Shown here: positions 5,734-44,789 of the stretch, one piece after another
Numbering within the stretch: the stretch's first letter is position 1
Layout of the letters: each line of letters starts with the position of its first letter
Origin: Euonymus europaeus
Taxonomy: Eukaryota > Streptophyta > Magnoliopsida > Celastrales > Celastraceae
Length of the DNA: 64,000 bases
Assembly (NCBI GenBank): GCA_963580455.1
Contig: OY756958.1
Location: 7,452,501 to 7,516,500, forward strand
Reading direction: 5' to 3'
Made by a program: the position numbers and the translations under genes
Notes under the pieces: generated by a model
Databases searched by the model: none
What the model saw: only the letters and a program-made list of their open reading frames with translations
What the model was told of the DNA's origin: nothing

Positions 5734-7014
5734 GCAGGAGGAAGATCTAGAAGAAGATCACACAGAATGTATTGAGCAGGGGGAGCCACAACCTCCTCCA
5801 GTTGAAGCTCCTTAGCTAGAAAGATCTCTAAGGGATCGTACTCTAATTCCGTTAAGAAGATATCCGAATTCAGACTATATTCTACTTACTGATTAGGGGG
5901 AGCCAGAGAGCTTTTAAGAAGCTCGCACTCATGGTGAAAGTAATGAGTGGATGCAAGCTATGCAAGAAGAGATGGATTCCTTGCAGAAAAATCAAACTTA
6001 TGAGTTGGTGAAACTTTCTAAAGGGAAGAAAGCGCTGCAGAACAAATGGGTGTTCAAGATGAAGAAAGATGGCAACAGAAAGCTTATGAAGTACAAGCTC
6101 GGTTGGTCGGCAAATGATTTCAACAGAAGAAAAGAGTTGACTTTGATGAGATTTTCTCATCTATGGTGAAGATGACATCCATCCGAGTCATACTTGGGTT
6201 ACTAGCAAGTACAAATCTGGAGCTTGAACAAATGGATATAAAGACAGCTTTTCTCCATGGTGATTTGGAGGAAGAAATTTACATGGCGCAGCCAGAAGGC
6301 TTCGAAGTTCCTAAGAAGAAGCACTTGGCCTGTAAACTACATAAAAGTCTCTACGGCGCAGGAGGAAGATCTAGAAGAAGATCACACAGAAGGTATTGAG
6401 CAGGGGGAGCCACAATCTCCTTCTCCAGAAGTTGTAGAATCAGCACAACCTCCTCCAGTTGAAGCACCTCAGCCAGAAAGATCTCTGAGGGGTCGTACTC
6501 TGATTCCGTTAAGAGGATATCCGGATTCAGAATATATTCTACTTACTGATGAGGGGGAGTCAGAGAGGTTTCAAGAAGCTCGCACTCATGGTGAAAGTAA
6601 TGAGTGGATGCAAGCTATGTAAGAAGAGATGAATTCCTTGTAGAAAAATCAAACTTATGAGTTGGTGAAACTTTCTAAAGGGAAGAAAGCACTGGAAAAC
6701 AAATGGGTGTTCAAGATGAAGAAAGATGGCAACGGAAAGCTTATGAAGTACAAAGCTCGATTGGTCGGCAAATGATTTCAACAGAAGAAAGGAGTTGACT
6801 TTGACGAGATTTTCTCATCTGTGGTGAAGATGACATCCATCCGAGTCATACTTGGGTTAGTAGCAAGTATGAATCTAGAGCTTGAACAAATGGATGTAAA
6901 GAAGCTTTTCTTCATGGTGATTTGGAGGAAGAAATTTACATGGCGCAACCAGAAGGCTTCAAAGTTCCTAAGAAGAAGCACATGGTCTGTAAACTACAGA
7001 AAAGTCTCTACGGC
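5734..7014 (+). repeat. Tandem duplication of the linker/RT segment (624 and 657 bp)
   Basis: Copy A (5734-6357) and copy B (6358-7014) both start GCAGGAGGAAGATCTAGAAG and end CTCTACGGC. They cover the acidic linker and the N-terminal half of RT. Copy B has 33 extra bases in the Pro-rich linker (after CCACAATCTCC). It differs at many single sites, including stops absent from copy A. Only copy B continues in register into the rest of RT. Confidence 0.9.
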
Positions 7015-10805: not shown

Positions 10806-11436
10806 TGGATCCGAGGGCTAGCACAATGAACTTAAATGTAATTCCGAATTTGATATCACAAGAGGATATATGTTCTCTCAATGCTAATACTTTCAGTCAC
10901 AATAATCTTCTATCCGATGATTCTGAAGATGAAAATGAGATCTTGGAGAATGATGATGATGATAACGAAGGTGATCATTTTCTTAATTATATGGGCCGGG
11001 GCCTTCTACATTCTCACAATTTTAGAGCAGTATAAACGCAAGACCTTCAACATTCTTATAGTTTTAGAGCAGTATGGACGCGGGGACATATGCTCACTAT
11101 ATGGAGCCTTTAGCTCCAGCATTTATAGATGTTAGCTGGGTCAATCAAGCTGTGGATAGTCAGTGGGTGCAACAACAAGTTAAACTCCAAAATACAAATG
11201 AGAAGGCAGAACTAATTTATGTAGTGAAGATGTACCACAATGAAGCACATGCGCAATATAAAGTAACACACTCTGATCCTGGTCGTCTTATCCTAAAGTG
11301 CAGAAAGGAGGTGGCTGTAACTGGAAATGTACTACATCAATGCCCGAGAGGCATGATTTCTTTAGGATTGCGAGACTATAACCTCCTCATACTTGTTCAA
11401 ATCCTATTATAAATTGGGACCATGAAAACAAAACAT
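10806..11436 (+). pseudogene. MuDR-type MULE transposase, N-terminal fragment
   Basis: The frame from the ATG at 10806 encodes an acidic segment (DDSEDENEILENDDDDNEGD). The region to about 11412 encodes ELIYVVKMYHNEAHAQYKV, RLILKC and CP, matching the layout of the N-terminal DNA-binding domain of plant MuDR transposases. A shifted frame then continues with PPHTCSNPIINWDHEN up to about 11436, the Cys/His part of the same domain. Stops and shifts lie near 11035 and 11330-11370. The DDE catalytic domain is absent. Its relation to the TIR element just to the left is unknown. Confidence 0.6.
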
Positions 11437-11439
11437 TCA

Positions 11440-12104
11440 GTCAAAAACCTAACCCAATATATGAGTTTCTTCCTGCACATGAAAACAAAACTTACTTCGT
11501 TTTGTTTTACAGAGTTGTGTAGGCAGTCACTCTGTCACTTCTGTAACTATGTCTGACGAAAAAATCAGCATTCCAAATTCTGGGATGTCAAAGATCACTA
11601 TGGTGGTCTCCGATGTCCTGTTAGGTGGTCCAAACATTAACATTCATGTATGACCCGATTAATAGAGAGGGAGGAGACTCACCAAGTTTTGCCATGTTTT
11701 CGGCAACGTAGTAACACCAATCATCTCCACTCAAGTCTGAGCCCTCCAAGGTAACTAGTTCATAATCAGAAAATAGAACAACATTCGTCAATGTTTCTAC
11801 AATCCATTCAAAACTTCAAGAGAGAATAGGTATGAAAACCTTACTTATTGTCATCGTCGGCGACCCAACAACGAGCGGTACCGTCTCCATTGATCATGGA
11901 GATGTGGTTGCTAGGAACAACAATTGATTCACTAAGGTTTAGGGAAAATACAACTAGGTATTTTTTAAGGAACAAGATTAGGAATAAAATCCTAATTAAG
12001 GCTTTCCTATAATCCCTCCATTACTAATTAATTCCTTTAATTTTTGATTTAATTATTGTCCAAAATTAAAATTCAAAATCACCTCTAAAATTGCGGGTTT
12101 TACA
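11440..12104 (-). mobile_element. Chromovirus LTR, copy 1 (3' LTR, - strand)
   Basis: On the - strand it starts TGTAAAACCCGCAATTTTAG at 12104, directly after a purine tract (GGAGGGTAGA) and the end of a chromodomain frame. That order marks it as a 3' LTR. It aligns along its length with 21610-22273 (shared ATATATGAGTTTCTT, TTTTACAGAGTTGTG, GATCACTATGGTGGTCTCCG, AAGAGAGAATAGGTA). Its outer end near 11440 abuts the MULE fragment and looks truncated. Confidence 0.7.
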
Positions 12105-14099: not shown

Positions 14100-15081
14100 G
14101 TTCCTCCATCTGAGTAGTTGAACATTATGAAGCATTGTCACTCCTATACTTGTGGCGGACATTTTGGAACCAAGAAAACAGCCCTTAAGGTATTTCACTC
14201 AGGATTTTATTGGCCCACTATTTTTAAAGATGTTTTGCTCTTTTGTAAGAGTTGTGATCGGTGCCAACGGACTTGAAATATACCAGCTCATGACCAAATG
14301 CCATTAACCAATATTCAGGTCATTGAACTCTTTGACGTATGGGGTATAGACTTTTTGGGTCCTTTCCCTTCCTCTTTTGGCTTTGAATATATTTTGGTGG
14401 GTGTTGATTATGTGTCAAAATGGGTTGAGGTTGTCCCCTCTCATACTAATGATCAACGAGTTGTTGTGAAGTTTTTGCAAGATAATATATTTGCCTGCTT
14501 TGGGACACCAATAGCCATTATCAGTGATGGGGGCAGTAACTTCAACAACTATCCTTGTGCTGCTTTGAATAAGAAGTATGGGATCGCCCACCGATTTGGT
14601 ACTCCTTACCATCCGCAGACTAGTGGGCAAGTGGAAGTAAGCAATCGAGAGATTAAAGCTATTTTGGAGAAGGCGGTGAATCCTAACCGTAAAGACTGGT
14701 TTTTGTGTCTTAATGATGTACCGAACTACTTTCAAAACACCCATTGGGATGTCTCCATTCAGACTAGTGTATGGGAAGGAATGCCATTTACTTGTGGAGT
14801 TGGAGCACCGAGCATATTGGGCTATAAAGAAATTCAACTTTGACATGAAAGAAGCTGGCTACTGGTATCGTATTCAGTTGAATGAATTAGAGGAGTTGCG
14901 TCATGAAGCTTATGAGAATGCAAAGTTGTACAAGGAGTGTTCAAAGAAATACCATGATCGCCAACTGTTGCGGAAAGAGTTTTCTCCAGGATAAAAGGTT
15001 CTTGTTTACAATTCACAGCTGCATTTGTTTCCAAAAAGCTGAAGTCTCGCTGGCATGGTCCTTATTTGGTGACAACTGTGT
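14100..15081 (+). pseudogene. Athila-like integrase
   Basis: A zinc-binding HHCC module (HFGTKKTALKVFHSGFYWP, then CKSCDRCQRT) is followed by the catalytic core: first Asp in [14 protein letters not shown], second in [10 protein letters not shown], Glu in [14 protein letters not shown]. The frame 14298-14843 covers the core. It shifts into 14713-14994 ([18 protein letters not shown], then a basic coiled stretch), hits a stop at about 14992, and runs on as SRWHGPYLVTTV to 15081. There a solo LTR interrupts it. The remaining C-terminus resumes at 17249. Confidence 0.9.
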
Positions 15082-21240: not shown

Positions 21241-21609
21241 CAACCACCTTGCATTTGTTAGACCATAAAAATGTGACCCCCTTAAATGAGATTTTTTAAA
21301 GTGGAGATAGTTAACCGGTGTAAACAATTATAATTGAATTTAATAATTTGAAAACGTTTTCCAAGCAAGTCAAATTTTTTTTCCAAAAGTCATTGATGCC
21401 TAAGCTATATGAATTTGATCAACCAAACTAATAAAGGAAACGAACAAGTAAAAATAGCACGAAATTCAAGGAAAGAAATACTACCTTCAAAGCAAAGAAA
21501 GGCTACGACCGAACAATAAAGGTATGAACCACACAAAATTAGTTTTATCTATGTAAAGCTTGGCCCACGTTATTGGTTTTATAATGTACCTGGGTCCACC
21601 TAAAATTTC

Positions 21610-22273
21610 GTCAAAAGCCCAACCTAATATATGAGTTTCTTTCTCCCCATGAAAACAAAACTTTCTTTGTTTTGTTTTACAGAGTTGTGGAGGTCATGAC
21701 TCGGTCACTTCTGTAACTACATCCGATGACGAAATCACCATTCCATATTCTGGGATGTCCAAGATCACTATGGTGGTCTCCGAGGTCCCGTTTGTTTGTC
21801 CAAGCATTAATATTCATGTAGGACCGATTAAAGAGAAAGGGAGAAGACTTACCAATTTTTTCCACGTTTCTGGTAACATAGTAATACAAATCGTCTTCAC
21901 TCAAGTCTTAGCCCTCTCCGATGTCACTGGTTCATAATTGGAAAATAGAACAACATTCGTTAATGGTTCTACAATCCATTCAAAACTTTCAAGAGAGAAT
22001 AGGTACAAAAAGCTTACCTATTGTCACCATCGGCGACCCAACAATGATCGGTACCATCTCCGTTGATCTTGGAGGTGTGGTTGTTGGGAACAATAATTGA
22101 TGTACTAAGGTTTAGAGAAAATACAACAAGGTATTTTTAAAGGAACAAGATTAGGTATAAAATCCTAATTAAGGATTTCCTATAATCCATTACCAATTAA
22201 TTCTCTTAATTTTTTATTTAATTTATGTCCAAAATTAGAATTCAAAATCATCTCTAAAATTGCTGGTTTTACA
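21610..22273 (-). mobile_element. Chromovirus LTR, copy 2 (- strand)
   Basis: It is homologous to 11440-12104 in the same orientation, with - strand start TGTAAAACCAGCAATTTTAG at 22273. No tRNA primer-binding sequence was found at its lower end, and related sequence may extend toward 21250. It is most simply the 5' LTR of the same - strand chromovirus whose interior was largely lost around the Athila insertion. A separate solo LTR is possible. Confidence 0.6.
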
Positions 22274-23289: not shown

Positions 23290-24950
23290 TTGCTGCAAGA
23301 AGACTTTTGAGCCATATCAATTCACAAGCTGCTACAGTCATAGCCCGATATTCAGCTTCTGCACTAGATCGTGCAACAATATGTTTTTTCCTTTGCCAAG
23401 AAACGATATTTCCACCAAGAAACATACAAAAACCATTGTTGGATTTATGATCATTAGCATTGCCAACCCAATCAAAATCACTATAACCCATAATTCGAGT
23501 ATGACCATTATTAACCATAATAATGTCATGCCCAACAACCCTTTGAGATAACGTAAGATACATCTAATAATATTCAAATCAAATGTAGTAGGGGCATGGA
23601 TGAATTGACTTACAACATATGTGATGTCAGGCCGAGTAATAATGAGGTAAATAAGATTACCAACTAGACGTTGATAGTAATCAATAGACTGAAGAGGATC
23701 ACCAGCCGTGTCTATCGTCAACTTACTATCCAGTGGGGTAGAAGCTGGTTTGACATCTTGCATCTTAGCATCGGTCAACAAATCAAGTATATATTTTCGT
23801 TGATTTAGAAACAAACCTTTATGTGAAGCAACCATTTCAATACCCAGGAAGTACTTTAAGGAACCAAGATCTTTAATAGGAAATTGATTTTGTAGTGTAA
23901 CCTTGAGATGAGAAATAGTATTTGAATTATTCCCCATAATGATAAGATCATCAACGTAGATAAGAACCACCAAGGTTTCATCAGATTGGATACGAATAAA
24001 CATAGAATAATCAACATCACTTCTTCGAAAACCCACTTATCCTCAAAAAAAAGTGCCCAACTTTGCATGCCAAGCACACAGGGATTGTTTCAACCCATAA
24101 ATTGATTTCTGTAGTCTACACACCAAAGTAGGTTAAGATCCTTATGGATGACCAAGTGATAGCTTCATGTAGACTTCTTCTTCAAGATCCCCATGTAAAA
24201 AAGCATTTTTTACATTCATTTGGCACAACAACCGACCATGATTCATATCAACAGACAAGAGAACACGGATAATGTTCATTTTGGCAACGGGGTGCAAATT
24301 TTTCCTTGTAATCAACTCCAAATGTCTAAGTGAACCCCTGAGCCACAAGACGAGCCTTATGTTGGTCAATAGAATCATCTGAATAAAATTTAGTTGTATG
24401 CACCCAACGGCAACCAACAGGATGTTTCCCATTAGGAAGGTGAACAACACTCCAACTGTGATTGTTAGCAAGTGCTTGTAATAGTTCATCATACATTGCT
24501 TGGTGCCCTATAGCTTGAGAGTTAGCCTCTTGAAAATTTCTATGTTCAAAAACACTCGAAATAAAGGTGAGAAAAGCCACATGGGAAGGGGATAAACGGT
24601 GATAAGCAAGAGAAGAAGTAATAGGATACCGTGCATAATAAGTTACAAAATCTTGCATCTTTGCTGGTGGAGCCCGATGACGTGATGGATTGTGACGAGG
24701 AGGCTGCACAGGTGTAAGATATTCTCCTGGCTCATCAATAGAACTAGCAATATCACCAAGTGAAGGTGGAATAGAAATCTCAATTTCCATAAGAGGAGCA
24801 TCAATAGCTGATATGTTATGATCATGAGCAGACCCAGCAACATTAGAGTCACTAGAATCAACTTCTGAAGCACTTTCTGATGTGACATGAGTATTAGAAA
24901 TAGGAGTGGTTATAGAAGCTTCGGCCATGACATCTGGTACAGGCAAAGAA
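23290..24950 (-). pseudogene. copia RT and RNase H (- strand)
   Basis: The reading begins after a Ser/Pro-rich linker (VTSESASEVDSSDSN). It has ALANNHSWSVVHLPNGKHPV, GCRWVHTTKF, DQHKARLVAQGFT, CQMNVKNAFLHGDLEEEVYM, then the catalytic LIYVDDLIIMG (near 23940-23970), LGSLKYFLGIEM, GLFLNQRKYILDLL and TRPDITYVVSQF. The RNase H part has YSDFDWVGNANDHK and SSAEAEYRAM. Homology stops after IWLKSLLAA at about 23290. Frame changes lie near 24320, 24145, 24040 and 23560. Confidence 0.9.
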
Positions 24951-24988
24951 AGAAAATCCTTTAAAAAATTCGGCTGATGTATATGGTC

Positions 24989-25521
24989 TTAATATGAGGA
25001 TGCTTCTTCAAAACGAACATCCCTGGAAATAATCAATCTTCTTATAGCTGGATGGTAACATTTATAACCTTTCTTGAAGGATGAATATCCCAAAAAAACA
25101 CACATCATAGCTCGAGCATCAAGTTTGTCACGATGGACAGCCTGTATATGAACAAAGCAAATGCAGCCAAATACTTTTAAATGCAACAAATTAGGAGATT
25201 TTCCTCGCAGGACCTCAAGTGGAGATTTAAACTCCAAAAATTGACTAGGTAACCTGTTGATACTGTAAGCTACTACTAGAACTCCTTGTAATCAAAACCT
25301 CTTTGGAACATGCATTTGGATCATCAAGGCTCACGTTTTTTCAAGAAGATCTTTATTCTTAGGTTCAAATACTCTATTTCGTTGAAGAGTCCCACACAAC
25401 TTGATTGATGAAAAATGCCATGAGAATTTAAATACTGTGTCATTTTTTTAGACATATATTCGGTACCATTGTCAGAACAAAGAATTTGGATTTTTGAAGA
25501 AAATTGATGCATGACAAACAC
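24989..25521 (-). pseudogene. copia integrase, C-terminal portion (- strand)
   Basis: QILCSDNGTEYMS carries the second catalytic Asp, but the third catalytic region is disrupted right after HGIFHQSSC. A second frame (24989-25237) holds LEVLRGKSPNLLHLKVFGC, FVHIQAVHRDKLD and VFLGYSSFKKGYKCYHP, the usual C-terminal part. The HHCC zinc domain and first Asp are absent, deleted together with protease. Confidence 0.85.
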
Positions 25522-26450: not shown

Positions 26451-26506
26451 GGAGAAGTGACATAAGATTCTTGAAAAAATAAAAAAAAAATGAAGAGGAA
26501 CTTACG

Positions 26507-26608
26507 CCTCCGATACCATGAAGAAAGTTGAAAGCAGAGAAAGAAGGAGAATGGAGAATGAAGATCTATTCATTATTATAATGTACAGCAATGTACAACC
26601 CTATATAA
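26507..26608 (-). other. copia PBS and 5' LTR end (U5/R)
   Basis: On the - strand: TATATAGGGTTGTACATTGC, then AATAATGAATAGATCTTCAT, then a CT-rich stretch ending CTTTCTTCA (LTR end at 26519), then PBS TGGTATCGGAGG at 26518-26507. The TATATA box and the following sequence fit a copia promoter and U5. Confidence 0.75.
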
Positions 26609-26731
26609 TGTTGCAAATACTTTTTAGTATTGGGAGGGCACATTATCCATCTTCATTATTATAATGTACAGCAATGTACAACCCTATATAATGTTGGAAA
26701 TACTTTTTAGTATTGGGAGGGCACATTATCC
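26567..26731. repeat. ~83-bp direct duplication of LTR sequence
   Basis: The segment with CATTATTATAATGTACAGCA, ACCCTATATAATGTTG and GGGAGGGCACATTATCC occurs at 26567-26648 and again at 26650-26731. In the first copy the array unit stops after CATTATCC. In the second it continues as full unit R1. Confidence 0.9.
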
Positions 26732-28242
26732 TCTCCCCGCCTTTACCCAGGATCGAACCTGGGTGGTTGCCTTTATAGGTCCCCCACTGTCCGTCCTGGT
26801 ACCACTGAACCAAGTTGGCTCAGTGGTACCAGGACGGACAGTGGGGACCTATAAAGGCAACCACCCAGGTTCGATCCTGGGTAAAGGCGGGGAGAGGATA
26901 ATGTGCCCTCCCAATACTAAAAAGTATTTCCAACATAAAGGCGCCTTTATGTTGGAAATACTTTTTAGTATTGGGAGGGCACATTATCCTCTCCCCGCCT
27001 TTACCCAGGATTATCCTCTGTGTGGTTGCCTTTATAGGTCCCCCACTGTCCGTCCTGGTACCACTGAGCCAACTTGGTTCAGTGGTACCAGGACGGACAG
27101 TGGGGGACCTATAAAGGCAACCACCCAGGTTCGATCCTGGGTAAAGGCGGGGAGAGGATAATGTGCCCTCCCAATACTAAAAAGTATTTCCAACATAAAG
27201 GCACTGTCCGTCCTGGTACCACTGAGCCAACTTGGTTCAGTGGTACCAGGACGGACAGTGGGGGACCTATAAAGGCAACCACCCAGGTTCGATCCTGGGT
27301 AAAGGCGGGGAGAGGATAATGTGCCCTCCCAATACTAAAAAGTATTTCCAACATAAACGCCTTTATGTTGGAAATACTTTTTAGTATTGGGAGGGCACAT
27401 TATCCTCTCCCCGCCTTTACCCAGGATCGAACCTGGGTGGTTGCCTTTATAGGTCCCCCACTCTCCGTCCTGGTACCACTGAACCAAGTTGGCTCAGTGG
27501 TACCAGGACGGACAGTGGGGGACCTATAAAGGCAACCACCCAGGTTCGATCCTGGGTAAAGGCAGGGAGAGGATAATGTGCCCTCCCAATACTAAAGAGT
27601 ATTTCCAACATAAAGGCACATTTATGTTGGAAATATATTTTTATATTGGGAGGGCACATTATCCTCTCCCCGCCTTTACCCAGGATCGAACCTGGGTGGT
27701 TGCCTTTATAGGTCCCCCACTGTCCGTCCTGGTACCACTGAGCCAAATATATTTTTATATTGGGAGGGCACATTATCCTCTCCCCGCCTTTACCCAGGAT
27801 CGAACCTGGGTGGTTGCCTTTATAGGTCCCCCACTCTCCGTCCTGGTACCACTGAACCAAGTTGGCTCAGTGGTACCAGGACGGACAGTGGGGGACCTAT
27901 AAAGGCAACCACCCAGGTTCGATCCTGGGTAAAGGCAGGGAGAGGATAATGTGCCCTCCCAATACTAAAGAGTATTTCCAACATAAAGGCGCATTTATGT
28001 TGGAAATATATTTTTATATTCGGGGTGGCACATTGTCCACTCCCCGCCTTTACCCAGGATCGAACTTGGAATTGCCTTTATAGGTTCCTCAGAGGTCCGT
28101 CCTGGTACCACTGAGCCAACTTGGTTCAGTGGTACCAGGACGGACAGTGGGGGACCTATAAAGGCAACCACCCAGGTTCGATCATGGGTAAAGGCGGGGA
28201 GAGGATAATGTGCCCTCCCAATACTAAAAAGTATTTCCAACA
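26609..28242. repeat. Array of alternating inverted ~122-bp tRNA-like units
   Basis: Forward units (F) start TTGGCTCAGTGGTACCAGG or TTGGTTCAGTGG and end AGTATTTCCAACA. Reverse units (R) are their complements. F units: 26815-26935, 27074-27195, 27232-27353, 27489-27610, 27862-27983, 28121-28242. R units: 26692-26814, 26950-27073, 27366-27488, 27625-27746, 27747-27861 (outer end short), 27998-28120. Fragments: 26609-26648 (tail) and 27202-27231 (head). Every F is joined head to head with an R, giving six palindromes of about 244 bp. Tail-to-tail joins such as AACATAAAGGCGCCTTTATG are also palindromic. Each F has TGGCTCAGTGG (fits the pol III A box TRGYNNANNNG) and GTTCGATCC (fits the B box GWTCRANNC) about 53 bases apart. 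Protein frames through the array are artefacts. Confidence 0.9.
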
Positions 28243-28394
28243 TATAAATGGAGTTTTAACGTATCAATACACATATTTAGGCCTAGAGTTTAGCTACATA
28301 TATCAATCAAATATACAACAACTAATAGCATTAAAAGAGGACTAAGAAATATCAACAAATTGCATTAAAATAGGACACTGACATATCACCTAAC

Positions 28395-29012: not shown

Positions 29013-30975
29013 ACAATTTTGAGAGAATATCTGGTGAAAAAGTGAGCCTAGAAAAATGCTCAGTGTTCTTCAGTGCAAATGTTCCTCAACAAATTAAAAA
29101 TTCTATAAAGGCACGACTCCGCATGGAGGATATTCCAGCCACCTCTATGTATCTAGTACTGCCCATTATTTGTTCTCGTTCACGCAGAGTCATGTTTAGC
29201 TACATAAAGGAGTGGGTCTTTAACAAGATGAAGGGATGGTCAGAAAAATTGTTGTCTTAGGCAGGGAGACTTGTTCTTCTCAAGGCTATTGCTCAAGCGA
29301 TACCTTGCTATGATATGAGCCTTTATCGTTTCCCAATGGGTTTTTGCAAAGAGCTTAATCGTCTTGTGCATCGATTTTGGCAGGGTAATAGAGCAAAAAA
29401 TTTGTTCTCGTAAATCGGAGGGAGATTTAGGGGTTCAGGACTTCTCTAATTTCAATTATGCATTGCTCACCAAAAAAGGGTGGCACTTGCTCCAAAGGCC
29501 TAATTCTCTGTGTGCCAAATTTCTGAAAGCTCATTATTTCCCCCACACATCTTTTCTTGAGGCCTTATGGGGATCCTCTCCATCATACATGTGGTCAAGT
29601 ATTCTCTCAGCTAGAGATATTATAAAATCTGGGTATAACAGGCATGTGGATAATGGCAAAACTATATCTATCTAGACTGAGCCTTGGATACCAGATTCTA
29701 AAACGAGTGTTGTTGTGTCTCAACCAATGAATTATGCCCTAAAATTTTTTGTAGCCCATCTTATTGATTTAGATACAAAATGTTGGAACTAGGAGAAAAT
29801 CCAGTCTATTTTTTCAGTGGAGGAAGCCCACAAAATTATCCAAATTCCTTTGTATGGATTGCGACATGATGATTCATTTTTTGGGCCCATGACCCTAAGG
29901 GATGGTTCTCATTCAAATCTGCATACTAGGTTGCTCGAGCTGGGAGTGTTGTAGCTCATGATCCAGAAGAGAAAAATTTATCTCCTTGTGGACTGGTGTT
30001 TAATTGGAAGTATATATGGAGGCTAAAAGTTCCTCATAAAGTTAAAATTTTCCTATGGCGGCTTGCACATGACAGTATTCCAACGAAGGAAAATCTTGTT
30101 CACAAAGGTATGGATATTAAGTTGGAGTGTTCTTGTTGTCACATTGGGGCATAATTTTCTTTACATGTCTTCAGAGAGTGTATTTTTCTGAATGAAATAT
30201 GGCACGCATGCTCGTATGCCCATCAGTACATTTTTGCTCCGCTCACATCCTTTTCCTCCCGGCTTTCTTGGATAATGCAGTCATTATCTCTGTCTGATGC
30301 TAGTCTCATGGCATGCATTTTTTATTTTATTTGGGCTGCGGGAAATAGATGAATCCGTGGGGAATCCCATTGGCTTCCATCCCAAGTTTTACTATTGGCT
30401 AATAATATGGTGAATGATCTTTCAAGTTGCTCTCAGCCACGTAACACCTTTTTTAACTCCAACCACCAGATTTCTCCAATATGTGTTAAACCCCCACCAA
30501 ATGCTATCAAGATCAATGTAGATGGGGCTTGGCGGCTGGGAGATGTTTGGGTTGGTATTGGAGTTGTGGAGCGGGATTGCGATGGTTAAGTTCTCTTTTC
30601 AGCTTTTTAGAGAGTTTTTCCCGTAGGTGGTCCGCAATATGCAGAGGTGTTGGCTTTCAAACTTGGGACTTTGCTTGCTAAAGAGAATAATTGGATGAAT
30701 GTGCAAATTGAAGGTGATGCTCAAGTTATTGTCTCAAGTCTTCAGAGTTGGTCTGTTCCGGGTACCTCATTGAGTTTCATATTTGATGATATTAAGGAAT
30801 TGGCTGCTGACAGGAATTTCAATTTCTTATATGCTCCTAGATCTTGTAATAGAGTCTTTGATGCCTTGGCTTGTCTTGGCAGAATGGCATCTACTAATTC
30901 TGTCCAGCTCCTTATGGATGGTGTTCCTTCGTCCATTGGAGCTCTTGTGGCAACAGATTGTAATCTTGGTTGACT
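29013..30975 (+). mobile_element. LINE, 5'-truncated, degenerate
   Basis: Only the 3' part of a plant LINE ORF2 remains: the end of RT from FERISGEKVSLEKC, GRLVLLKAIAQAIPCYDMSL, the DLGVQDFSNFNYALLTKKGW region, a zf-RVT type segment (KYIWRLKVPHKVKIFLWRLA, then CSCC) and an RNase H domain (30478-30973) with INVDGAW, AEVLAFKLGTLLAKE and FDALACLGRMAS. Frames break near 29260, 29675, 29790, 30150, 30350 and 30588. The end at 30975 is followed by an A/T-rich stretch without a clean poly-A. Endonuclease and RT catalytic core are absent, as expected from 5' truncation at insertion. Confidence 0.9.
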
Positions 30976-40520: not shown

Positions 40521-40557
40521 AAATATGCTCGACCTTGAGGAGTTCTCCAAGCTCTAT

Positions 40558-41424
40558 CAGGCTGACGGGATAAAAGTAAAACTACTTTTTAAAGAGAATC
40601 TTCTTCCATCTCTGAGAGATACACGTTTAGTTGACCCATCCAGAGCAGTCATATCAATTCTACAAAGCTATTCACTAATTCCTTTCGGCTATGACCTAGT
40701 TTTAGCTGATCTAAATATGGGTGTTTTTCTATGGACTGCCATTTCAAGTATTGATTCCGTACAAGCTGAGGAAGTATGGCAACAGCTTCCAGATACAAGG
40801 AAAATGTTCACATTACCTACTCAACAGTTCAAAGAAGGGAAAAAAAGTTAAAACACGGCCAAAAAGACATGTATACTAGTAGAATCAAATAGTTTCTGAA
40901 TTCATAGGAAAGAAAGGCATAAAGCTATAAAAATTTAATAAAATTATGCACTGAATTATCCACAATCAAATGAACAAAATAGAACATTGATACCTCTTTG
41001 AAAGTAAACCTCTCATTTATAAGTAAGGCCTAAAATAAACAAGGCAGGATAGGGAAATAATGCCGAAAGGTGTCCTGATCTCTATCATAGGATCTACGAA
41101 CAATCTTGTGGCCTCGTATGTACCATACAATAGAGCTTTCTGCCCAAAAACATTAATATCATCATAGTATTATAAAAAGAAAAAAAATTGCAAGAAAACA
41201 CGAGATTAAAAGTTAAAACTTCAAAAATTTAGTACCGTTGAAAAAATGCTTGTGAGGGCCATGACTGACAAATGCACAATGCAGAAAAACATAAACTGAT
41301 CATTTAATACTATAAGACACAATCACACAACTGAAAACGGCATGCGCTTTTTTCAACAAGACAATGCCCTTTAAATAAAGAAAGCATATGACAAACAAAT
41401 TAAAGCCACAATAACCACAATCTA
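40558..41424 (-). pseudogene. Partial tandem copy of the ERD2 pseudogene 3' part
   Basis: Two blocks are copied here. Y_A (40766-41424) matches Y_B (43650-44309), and X_1 (40558-40767) matches X_2 (41426-41635). Y holds exon 3 (here 40994-41139) and the start of exon 4; X is sequence beyond the last exon. The layout is X_1-Y_A-X_2-Z-Y_B, where Z (41636-43649) holds the rest of exon 4 to exon 7. It therefore arose by tandem duplication of Y-Z-X with loss of Z from one copy. The Y_A/X_1 junction shares the two bases CT. Exon 3 in this copy has the same TAG (41030-41032), two bases missing at its start, and exon 4 has TGA for the Trp codon. Confidence 0.85.
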
Positions 41425-44309
41425 GCAGGCTGACGGGATAAAAGTAAAACTACTTTTTAAAGAGAATCTTCTTCCATCTCTGAGAGATACACGTTTAGTT
41501 GACCCATCCAGAGCAGTCATATCAATTCTACAAAGCTATTCACTAATTCCTTTCGGCTATGACCTAGTTTTAGCTGATCTAAATATGGGTGTTTTTCTAT
41601 GGACTGCCATTTCAAGTATTGATTCCGTACAAGCTATTTCAGCAATTAACTAAGGGCTCTCATATCCCTAATAAAATTTTACAACTTGGTCCATATGGCA
41701 AAAAAAGTAAATCCTGAATTGCAGAATAAGGTAACAACTATGTGCAACAAAATTCCAACCAAGTTGGTGTCTAAGAGTGCTTCCAAAATGTTAATCATCC
41801 CACAACAACAAAAAGCTACACCCATTCAACTTTTTATGAGGAAATAAATAATAGTTCTCCACATCAACACATAATAAGCATTAAAACTACTGGCAAGACT
41901 GGAGAAAAGAAGAAAAATCCTACAGTATTCAGTAGTACATTGACAATTTCATTCATAGTGCTAAATCGTCAGAGAAAATTGATCTGGTGGTTTTAGGGCC
42001 GCAGACCACATTTAATTTAGAAAATAAAATCAATTTTGTGGTTCAACAGTCCAACTAAAGTTCATCCCCTCCTTTCCTAGGAAAAAAGATAGGAAAAATG
42101 TAAAAACAAAAATGCAGATCTTATCTAATGGAGATACATAGCCATGTAAATGACTTGCAATGCCAACCCCGAAAAGATTCAAGCCGGCAACTAAAGCTTT
42201 ACGTTGTTTTTCCAGCTGCATAAGCATAAGCACATCTATGGACTCGATTTGGGCAAGCAACAACATATCTTCAACAGGGTTTCCAGAAAAGTCAAGGGCA
42301 CTTACCTTTGGAAGTAATAATAGAAGAAATCAGCATATAGTAATGTCTGCACGAGCCCTGCTATCCAAGCTTCAAGGCAAAAGTACCATATATAGGGAGT
42401 GTTGACAAATGCTTAAGATAAAACATAAAAACTAAAATACACAACGCAAGCCAAGACACACACACACACACAGATAGATTTTATACTTATCCAATGGACA
42501 TAATGATCCTCCGTAAAGTATCGATATATCCAGTTCAACATGTACAATGCTCGGTAGGCACTACATGAAAACAAGTAAAATATGTGCCTGGTTAGCATCT
42601 AGAGAATTAAAATAATTTTACACGACTTTCATAAGAACTAGAAAATTTGAATGCCAAATTAAATGATCTGAGACATGTTTTATGTGCTCAACCTATGTAA
42701 GTTCTGCATTTTCAGTATCCAGAATCATGCCTTAAGAATATGGTACTAAATGTGCAAAAGAAAATTATTGTTGCAAGGAGTTCCAGCAACATGGGCCATC
42801 TACTCCGGACTGTTCCTTACTAACTAGGTGACCCAGGTTTGAGGATTCGGTCTGACAGGAAACCAAATACATTTAAGGATAACATTACCCTGGTCGTATG
42901 ATACATTTAAGGATAATCTAGATAGTTTATCTCTTGAAAATTTTGAAGTCCTCAAAATATTTATTTGAGGAAAAAGCTAGAAGCAACAAAAGAAGAAATA
43001 AATCATTAAATTGGTACAACAAAAAAATGGTGGTAAGAATGCACATAAACAAAATAAAATTGATGAAGAAATCGAAGTTCAAAGCACTAATACTGATACT
43101 CCAGTTGTAAAAAAGACTGACCGCAGCTCTCCAGCTTCCCCCTCCCCAAACAACAGACACTACTACCCAAACTTTTTTCTTCAGTATGGTAAAACATCAC
43201 TAATCCCAGAATATTAGCAACACAAAGGCAAAGCAAACCAGCGAAATGAAATGACTGGGAATAAGTAAACAAAACTCGTGCACAAAGCTCCCACAGTGGA
43301 TGAGGTCATGGATTGGTAAGATGTACAGAGTCTCTACCCCCATGTAATATGTGGAGAGATTGTTTCCAAGAACTAAACTTGTCACCTTTACGTTGCACCC
43401 TTGCAACTCTACTGTTGGGTCACATGTTGGCATGTGACTTATAGAATAAAAGAGGGCAAAAAAAATAGACAATACTCGACAGTGGCATGGTGATTATGAA
43501 GCCGTGAGGAAGCCAAAGTGCTTCCATACAATGTAATACTCTAGGGATGCTACCAGAACAAGAGCATTTGAGTTAACATATTACCCAAGGAGAAAAACAT
43601 TTTGTGCAGTCAAGTTGTCAATGTTCCTTGTCCTTTGCAACAATACAATCTGAGGAAGTATGGCAACAGCTTCCAGATACAATGAAAATGTCCACATTAC
43701 CTGCTCAACAGTTCAAAAAAGGGAAAAAAATTTAAAACACGGCCAAAAAGACATGTATACTAGTAGAATCAAATAGTTTCTGAATTCATAGGAAAGAAAG
43801 GCATAAAGCTATAAAAATTTAATAAAATTATGCACTGAATTATCCACAATCAAATGAACAAAATAGAACATTGATACTTCTTTGAAAGTAAACCTCTCAT
43901 TTATAAGTAAGGCCTAAAATAAACAAGGCAGGATAAGGAAATAATGCTGAAAGGTGTCCTGATCTCTATCATAGGATCTACGAACAATCTTTTGGCCTCG
44001 TATGTACCATACAATAGAGAAAGAGCTGCCCAAAAATATCAATTTCATCATAGTATTATAAAAAGAAATAAAATTCCAAGAAAACACGAGATTAAAAGTT
44101 AAAACTTCAAAAATTTAGTACCGTTGAAAAATGCTTGTGAGGGCCATGACCGAAAAATGCACAATGCACAAAAACATAAACTGATCATTTAATACTATAA
44201 GACACAATCACACAACTGAAAAAGGCATGCGCTTTTTTCAACGAGGCAAAGCCCTTTAAATAAAGAAAGCATATGACAAACAAATTAAAGCCACAATAAC
44301 CACAATCTA

Positions 44310-44789
44310 TCAACATCAATAAAAAAAGAGTTAAGACTTTATACGAAGTGTGCATTGAAAACACATAACCAAAATAACCAGAATGCCTCTTCATGCTCTA
44401 GCTGACCAAGGAAGGCCTACTCTGCAGTTAAAAATGGCTCCAAAGCTTTGCACCAGCTAGGAGGGGTCATGGCTAGTTAGCCGGTCAAAAAGATCATGAC
44501 CCTGAAGATTAAATCAGGCCCACGGTTTAAGCCATCGCGACACAATAGGTCCACAGCCTATGCCATCGTCAGCCCAGGACCTAGAAGACTACTCAAGCCC
44601 ATGGCATCAACAGCCTAACAAGCCTATGACGTAGGCCATTGTTGCATAACAGGACCTATAGCCTACGAAGCCCAGTAACCTCAGAGTCTGGCTCCCCGCC
44701 CACGTGCCTTTGACACATCACATGAGGCTGAGGCCTATAATACCGAGACCTCTCAATATTTACAAGACCACATTTTTGTGAGGTATCCA
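44310..44789. other. Intron sequence with unassigned GC-richer repeat
   Basis: Within the ERD2 pseudogene intron. 44490-44720 is richer in GC, with repeated AGCCCA/GCCTATG/GGCCCA-like words (e.g. GCCTATGCCATCG, GCCTATGACG). It is probably an old transposon scrap. ERD2 exon 2 was sought here and not seen. Confidence 0.4.

What the first reader, a model, noticed from the sequence alone, without database searches (positions are those of the whole stretch)
26609..28242. Alternating head-to-head/tail-to-tail array of tRNA-like ~122-bp units
Six F and six R units (plus two fragments) alternate so that nearly every join is a palindrome. This is not a usual tandem repeat. Each unit has bases fitting the pol III A box (TGGCTCAGTGG) and B box (GTTCGATCC) about 53 bases apart, like a plant SINE head. 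The whole 1.6 kb can fold as a chain of ~244-bp hairpins. It sits exactly where the U3 of a copia LTR should be. Seen: layout and motifs. Inferred: origin from a SINE or from a foldback-like U3, and potential to feed dsRNA/siRNA pathways.
Basis: partly seen in the sequence, partly recalled or inferred. Interest (0 to 1): 0.88.

Follow-up and report, generated by a model that had tools for sequence, protein, structure and literature searches.

The report
Inverted tRNA-like hairpin array in LTR
In what is very likely the control region of a dead, probably plant retrotransposon, a 122-base stretch with tRNA-gene-like motifs occurs twelve times, six in each orientation; RNA copied from it is predicted to fold into long hairpins that would likely be cut into gene-silencing RNAs.

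Summary
The layout is real: six F and six R units plus two fragments at 26608-28244, 10 of 12 joins palindromic. The array fills the U3 of what is very likely the 5' LTR (28242 to 26519, minus strand) of a Ty1/copia element: TG...CA ends, a primer-site-like motif, two TATA boxes and decayed copia pol downstream. No second LTR was found in the window.

Each unit is the LTR's own first ~122 bp. A/B-box-like motifs exceed shuffles, but no unit meets the full canonical tRNA pattern, no tRNA is predicted, and no SINE tail or duplication was seen.

A pair of units folds at -249 kcal/mol. Eleven units average 3.3% apart (three pairs identical), while pol has five stops and two frame changes, so the array likely grew or was homogenised late.

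Closest known: Sirevirus palindromic LTRs and Helenus/TRIMp3 elements. The combination looks like a new variant. The host genome could not be searched, so locus or family is unknown.

The parts
26519..28242 (-). Putative 5' LTR of a Ty1/copia element: begins TG at 28242, ends CA at 26519
   Evidence: TGTTGGAAATAC start...CTTCA end directly followed by PBS-like TGGTATCGGAGG; copia pol downstream. No second LTR found in the window
26507..26518 (-). Primer-binding-site-like TGGTATCGGAGG
   Evidence: its resemblance to the initiator-tRNA-Met primer site is recalled, not from a call
26608..28244 (.). Alternating inverted array, 12 units plus 2 fragments
26569..26731 (-). 83-bp direct repeat, 2 copies, each with TATATAGGG (26599-26607 and 26682-26690) and 41 bp of unit tail
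   Evidence: TRF; positions
26608..26648 (-). fragment r0 (unit positions 84-124)
26691..26813 (-). unit R1, next to a TATA box
26814..26942 (+). unit F1
26943..27073 (-). unit R2, B-box-like motif lost
27074..27204 (+). unit F2
   Evidence: cut at 27201 for the alignment
27205..27231 (-). fragment rF3 (head of an R unit)
27232..27360 (+). unit F3
27361..27487 (-). unit R3
27488..27619 (+). unit F4 (used as the query unit)
27621..27746 (-). unit R4
27747..27860 (-). unit R5, tail truncated, head-to-tail with R4
   Evidence: one search aligned 27754-27860
27861..27990 (+). unit F5 (0 of 130 differences from F4)
27991..28120 (-). unit R6, the divergent one (8.9-16.4% from the other 11)
28121..28244 (+). 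unit F6; in LTR sense it is the start of the LTR
26481..26490 (-). T10 run just beyond the PBS-like site; first run of 4 or more T downstream of R1
23294..25291 (-). Decayed copia pol remnant: SH3-like domain, reverse transcriptase, truncated C-terminal part (RNase H by recalled domain order)
   Evidence: Pfam; tblastn

Best explanation
This is very likely the U3 part of the 5' LTR of a decayed, 3'-truncated, probably plant Ty1/copia element, in which the first ~122 bp of the LTR, carrying A-box-like and B-box-like motifs, occur as six units in each orientation; the array likely grew from one inverted pair by template switching at the palindrome, and RNA copied through it would fold into ~250-base hairpins predicted to feed the siRNA pathway. 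Shown: the unit layout, the LTR-like landmarks, the closeness of 11 units beside broken pol reading frames, and the extreme predicted fold. Inferred: an ancestral LTR had one head-to-head pair (F6 with the older-looking R6) ahead of the TATA box. Stalled copying at that hairpin then made further pairs, mostly after the element had died, copying whole pairs with their asymmetric tip: all six head-to-head tips carry one TTGGTTCAG and one TTGGCTCAG arm, three in each direction. Read-through transcription, by Pol II from either side or by Pol III or IV, would give long hairpin RNA for Dicer-like enzymes and keep the locus methylated; dicing and methylation follow from established plant pathways and are untested here.
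For: Layout. LTR landmarks: TG at 28242, CA at 26519, PBS-like site, two TATATAGGG boxes, copia RVT_2 and SH3_retrovirus domains on the same strand downstream. The unit's tail coincides with the LTR terminus: F6 spans 28121-28244 and the LTR starts at 28242. Lateness: R1-F2, R1-F3 and F4-F5 differ at 0 sites; the 55 pairs among 11 units (R6 set aside) average 3.3%, while R6-F6 differ at 17 of 122. The 400 aligned RT-to-C-terminal codons hold five in-frame stops, with two frame changes. If the units were as old as that decay, about 26 differences per 123 sites are expected (95% limits 8.4 to 60.3), with P(0) at most 2.3e-4 per pair. Tandem blocks with periods of 158, 373 and 415 bp and 279-bp blocks 98% alike show multi-unit copying. 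Fold: -249.1 kcal/mol for 259 nt, z -35.7, 0 of 200 shuffles as good. Precedent: palindrome clusters in copia (Sirevirus) LTRs attract small RNAs in maize (PMC10760457 and PMC5311732, passages).
Against: No second LTR, no target duplication and no other copy could be examined, so the LTR call rests on one LTR and its primer-site side. Gene conversion among units would also make them look young. The internal decay might predate this insertion if the element was copied in trans. Eleven units are not uniform: R2 and R5 differ at 11 of 114 sites. No small-RNA, methylation or expression data exist here. The template-switch history is read from one locus. An assembly error in unit number cannot be excluded without reads.
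Confidence: 0.55

Rival explanations
1. A family-wide U3 design: the inverted repeats are a regulatory (enhancer-like) array, formed during reverse transcription and present in many copies, like the palindrome clusters of Sirevirus LTRs; siRNA is a side effect.
For: Repeats lie in U3 directly upstream of the TATA boxes. [quoted passage not shown] A hairpin in the RNA template is a plausible place for reverse-transcriptase template switching (inference).
Against: Units are more alike than the decay of pol suggests, which fits late growth or conversion better. Units are ~122 bp, longer than the 19-base palindrome motif quoted for maize copia in PMC10760457. No second copy could be seen.
Confidence: 0.2
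2. A working Pol III promoter array: each unit is a SINE- or tRNA-derived promoter that makes short fold-back RNAs ending at the T-run of the next inverted unit, a Helenus-like LTR on a protein-coding copia.
For: A-box-like TGG(C/T)TCAGTGG in 12 of 12 units and GTTCRA 42-43 nt downstream in 11 of 12. Under two relaxed patterns 10 of 12 units match each, 0 places outside the array match, and 2 and 0 of 20000 shuffled units match. In 6 of the 11 units with both motifs (F1, F3, F4, F5, F6, R3) the first run of 4 or more T lies 132-148 nt after the start of the A box; for F6 it is in the flank.
Against: 0 of 12 units match TRGYNNARNNGG plus GGTTCGANNCC. No tRNA by ARAGORN or Rfam. Only 4 of 12 units (F1, F4, R4, F5) show both TRGCY...YGG and GGTTC, the features given for most Helenus LTRs (counted). 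The relaxed patterns were written after seeing the unit. In the other 5 of 11 (F2, R1, R4, R5, R6) no T-run comes for 303-777 nt. Kojima (PMC10886601) reasons that autonomous partners must use Pol II.
Confidence: 0.13
3. Repeated or inverted insertion of a plant SINE into the LTR, then expansion.
For: A/B spacing (43 nt) is within the 25-50 nt used by SINE-Finder as quoted in PMC8825457.
Against: No low-complexity tail and no target duplication seen around a unit; the unit's tail is the LTR terminus itself; a loose SINE-Finder-like pattern also starts at 12 places outside the array and in 156 of 20000 shuffles.
Confidence: 0.06
4. Assembly or sequencing artefact of a simpler palindrome.
For: Palindromes are hard to assemble; no reads were available.
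Against: Most units carry distinguishing differences, there are truncated units and unequal blocks, and tips occur in two orientations; a read-level fold-back artefact would be expected to give exact copies. Some pairs are identical, which does not help here.
Confidence: 0.06

Closest known systems
Sirevirus (Ty1/copia) LTR palindrome clusters of maize (Bousios et al. 2016, not held; seen only as cited in PMC10760457 and PMC5311732)
   Same: Copia superfamily; palindromic repeats in the regulatory part of the LTR; strong predicted RNA structure; proposed small-RNA target
   Different: There, short palindromic motifs in thousands of copies; here, ~122-bp units in alternating orientation in one seen locus. 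Sirevirus lineage was not tested
Helenus / TRIMp3 elements (Kojima 2024, PMC10886601) and Cassandra
   Same: tRNA-like (Helenus) or 5S-like (Cassandra) Pol III motifs inside an LTR; the paper proposes SINE insertion into an LTR
   Different: Those are miniature elements (Helenus 311-1263 bp); the only plant with a characterised Helenus is Selaginella. Here the LTR is ~1.7 kb, next to copia pol remnants, with motifs on both strands and also TATA boxes
Mu killer, an inverted-repeat silencing locus (as described in PMC10760457)
   Same: An inverted duplication of transposon sequence whose transcript would fold into dsRNA
   Different: [quoted passage not shown] here many short units and no expression data

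Membership tests
Ty1/copia LTR retrotransposon | copia-type pol domains on the LTR strand | tested here: met
   RVT_2 2.1e-20 and 6.1e-9, SH3_retrovirus 1.5e-30 in 3 of 5 copia frames scanned; tblastn to RT-family proteins
Ty1/copia LTR retrotransposon | TG...CA LTR followed directly by a tRNA primer site | tested here: met
   identity of the primer site recalled
Ty1/copia LTR retrotransposon | two LTRs and a target duplication | tested here: not met
   no second LTR found in the window; similarity to pol stops near 23294, so this copy looks truncated; the duplication cannot be tested
tRNA-derived SINE | A and B boxes at SINE spacing | tested here: inconclusive
   two relaxed patterns met in 10 of 12 units each; full canonical pattern in 0 of 12
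tRNA-derived SINE | low-complexity tail and flanking target duplications | tested here: not met
   unit sequence read directly; the tail is the LTR terminus
Helenus (TRIMp3) | tRNA-like sequence in the LTR with TRGCY, YGG and GGTTC | tested here: inconclusive
   all in 4 of 12 units (counted); no tRNA predicted
Helenus (TRIMp3) | miniature, non-autonomous element | tested here: not met
   LTR ~1.7 kb and pol remnants
Sirevirus-type palindromic LTR | palindromes clustered in the LTR regulatory region | tested here: met
   (structure only)
Sirevirus-type palindromic LTR | Sirevirus lineage of pol, and small RNAs on the palindromes | not tested
   no tree was built; no small-RNA data

The most novel reading that the evidence does not exclude
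A protein-coding copia lineage acquired a tRNA-like Pol III module in its U3 and turned it into a self-expanding inverted array, so that one LTR carries Pol II and Pol III start sites on both strands. Pol III would make ~150-base fold-back RNAs ending in the T-run of the neighbouring inverted unit: an LTR that is its own double-stranded-RNA factory and grows after the element has died.
Probability: 0.12. Interest if true: 0.75.

Novelty: new variant of a known kind. Interest (0 to 1): 0.45.

Why it matters
Plants silence new transposons partly by recognising hairpin RNA, and where such hairpins come from is a live question. An LTR that appears to have built a chain of hairpins from its own end, late in its life, would be a natural case of a transposon turning into a silencing locus. 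If the A and B boxes work, it would also extend Pol III-driven LTRs from miniature elements to a protein-coding copia.

Tried and rejected
tRNA gene: rejected. Rfam miRNA and mraW matches on the array (115 matches): set aside. They cover both strands and many unrelated families; three mraW stretches slightly exceed that family's cut-off in this small search (53.7, 52.1 and 52.0 against 50 bits), but the whole-window scan listed none; I read them as long hairpins. Coding array: a 118-aa frame through the array found no relative (1 candidate, none at E <= 10). Copies elsewhere: a 22-base unit pattern gave 0 matches in viral and in prokaryote contigs, and the RT frame gave 0 confirmed relatives in viral contigs (5 pattern matches failed). 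These collections are not plant collections, so this says little. Sequence words in papers: 30 of 72 rows seen, no title about plant LTRs; the matching passages were not read. A polypurine-tract origin of the extra tail TAAAGGC was considered and dropped, as it is not purine-rich on the expected strand (by eye).

A weaker hint kept out of the main case: the tails of R4 and R6 continue as TAAATG, and TAAATG also lies two bases outside the LTR (28245-28250). This could mean that flanking host DNA was copied, hence growth after insertion. The match is six bases and was noticed after the fact.

Limits of the motif test: the two relaxed A/B patterns were written after seeing the unit; the full canonical pattern matched 0 units and 1 of 20000 shuffles; the loose SINE-Finder-like pattern used GTTC[AG]A from recall (PMC8825457 prints its B box as CTTA[AG]A) and starts at 12 places outside the array and in 156 of 20000 shuffles.

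Paper searches that returned a list, rows seen of papers found: (21 of 21; 30 of 72; 25 of 1,891; 1 of 1; 7 of 7; 8 of 61; 8 of 46; 8 of 29), in a CC-licensed PMC library. In those rows I saw no title or abstract start describing a long alternating inverted array in an LTR; subscription papers are not covered. Papers: PMC10886601, abstract, Methods, Discussion and part 1 of 2 of Results read; PMC8825457, PMC10760457 and PMC5311732, passages only; PMC4728375 not held; the rest listings only.

Full report
What is there. The array at 26608-28244 was confirmed by repeat finding, tandem-repeat finding and iterative alignment with one unit. F units start at 26814, 27074, 27232, 27488, 27861 and 28121. 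R units start at 26691, 26943, 27361, 27621, 27747 and 27991. There are two R fragments (41 and 27 bp). Of 12 joins between successive pieces from R1 to F6, six are head-to-head and four tail-to-tail. The exceptions are F2 to the 27-bp fragment and the direct pair R4-R5. No 14-mer of unit F4 occurs elsewhere in the window.

Where it sits. On the minus strand the sequence reads TG at 28242, the array, two TATATAGGG boxes in an 83-bp direct repeat, then CA at 26519 and at once TGGTATCGGAGG, a primer-site-like motif. Decayed copia pol follows on the same strand. Five copia frames were given to Pfam; three matched (RVT_2 twice, SH3_retrovirus once) and none matched an integrase core. The host is therefore probably a plant; the species is not identified. 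Similarity to pol stops near 23294 and no second LTR was found, so neither a target duplication nor an LTR-LTR age can be measured.

What the unit is. F6 covers the LTR's own 5' end. Every unit is therefore a copy of the LTR's first ~122 bp, in one orientation or the other. Inside it TGG(C/T)TCAGTGG is followed 42-43 nt later by GTTCRA in 11 of 12 units. Two relaxed A-plus-B patterns match 10 of 12 units each and nothing else in the window, and 2 and 0 of 20000 dinucleotide shuffles of the unit; they were written after seeing the unit. Against a tRNA origin: 0 of 12 units fit the full canonical pattern, ARAGORN and Rfam find no tRNA, and no SINE tail or duplication is visible. I call it tRNA-like in motif, with its origin open.

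History. The six head-to-head tips are asymmetric in the same way, one TTGGTTCAG arm and one TTGGCTCAG arm, three in each direction. The copied thing is thus the pair, not the single unit. R1-F2, R1-F3 and F4-F5 have 0 differences, and the 11 units other than R6 average 3.3% apart, the farthest pair (R2-R5) 11 of 114. R6 is 8.9-16.4% from the others and 17 of 122 from its partner F6. The aligned pol stretch has five in-frame stops in 400 codons and two frame changes. The stops imply about 0.10 substitutions per site since constraint was lost (95% limits 0.03-0.25). Two units of that age would differ at about 26 of 123 sites (8.4-60.3). R6 against F6 (17 of 122) falls within that range; the identical pairs do not. 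Either the array grew after the element died or conversion keeps the units alike. The test assumes that pol decayed at this site and not in a parent copy.

How it would work. The pair at 27361-27619 folds as RNA at -249.1 kcal/mol, 0 of 200 shuffles as low; a lone unit folds modestly (-48.8, z -3.9). Any transcript through the region would be a chain of hairpins. Dicing to siRNA is a prediction. It has precedent in copia palindromes of maize Sireviruses, described in passages of PMC10760457 and PMC5311732. For Pol III, of the 11 units with both boxes, six (F1, F3, F4, F5, F6, R3) meet a first T-run 132-148 nt after the start of the A box, F6's lying in the flank. The other five (F2, R1, R4, R5, R6) meet none for 303-777 nt; R1's first T-run is the T10 just beyond the primer site.

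Comparison and verdict. Kojima 2024 (PMC10886601; abstract, Methods, Discussion and part 1 of 2 of Results) defines Helenus: miniature LTR elements with a tRNA-like LTR, in plants characterised only from Selaginella. This locus shares the idea but is not one: it has pol remnants, a 1.7-kb LTR, and only 4 of 12 units with all the Helenus box features. It works most like a Sirevirus-type palindromic LTR, but with much longer units. I rate it a new variant of a known kind, interest 0.45, limited by having one copy and no host genome: the genome search was unanswered seven times.

Noticed in passing
11432-12104 and 21602-22273: Direct repeats of ~670 bp, 85.5% alike, bracketing a stretch with an integrase core frame at 14277-14843; perhaps the LTRs of a ~10.8-kb element whose far end lies close to the truncated copia.
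   Followed up: no
40760-41427 with 43644-44312; 40553-40767 with 41421-41635: Direct repeats 95.5% alike (670 bp) and 99.5% alike (215 bp); the longer pair may be LTRs of a younger, short element.
   Followed up: no
5734-7014: Tandem pair of ~650 bp at 89% identity.
   Followed up: no
27621-28023 (units R4, R5, R6): The small inner hairpin AATACT-TTTT-AGTATT is changed on both sides to AATATA-TTTT-TATATT, keeping the pairing; possibly a template-switch correction inside a quasi-palindrome.
   Followed up: no
26943-27073 (unit R2): The B-box-like motif is replaced by AGAGGATAATCC, which resembles the unit's own GAGAGGATAATG, as if copied from the wrong place.
   Followed up: no
30611-30973: RNase H-like frame (Pfam RVT_3, 6.5e-8), origin not examined.
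   Followed up: no
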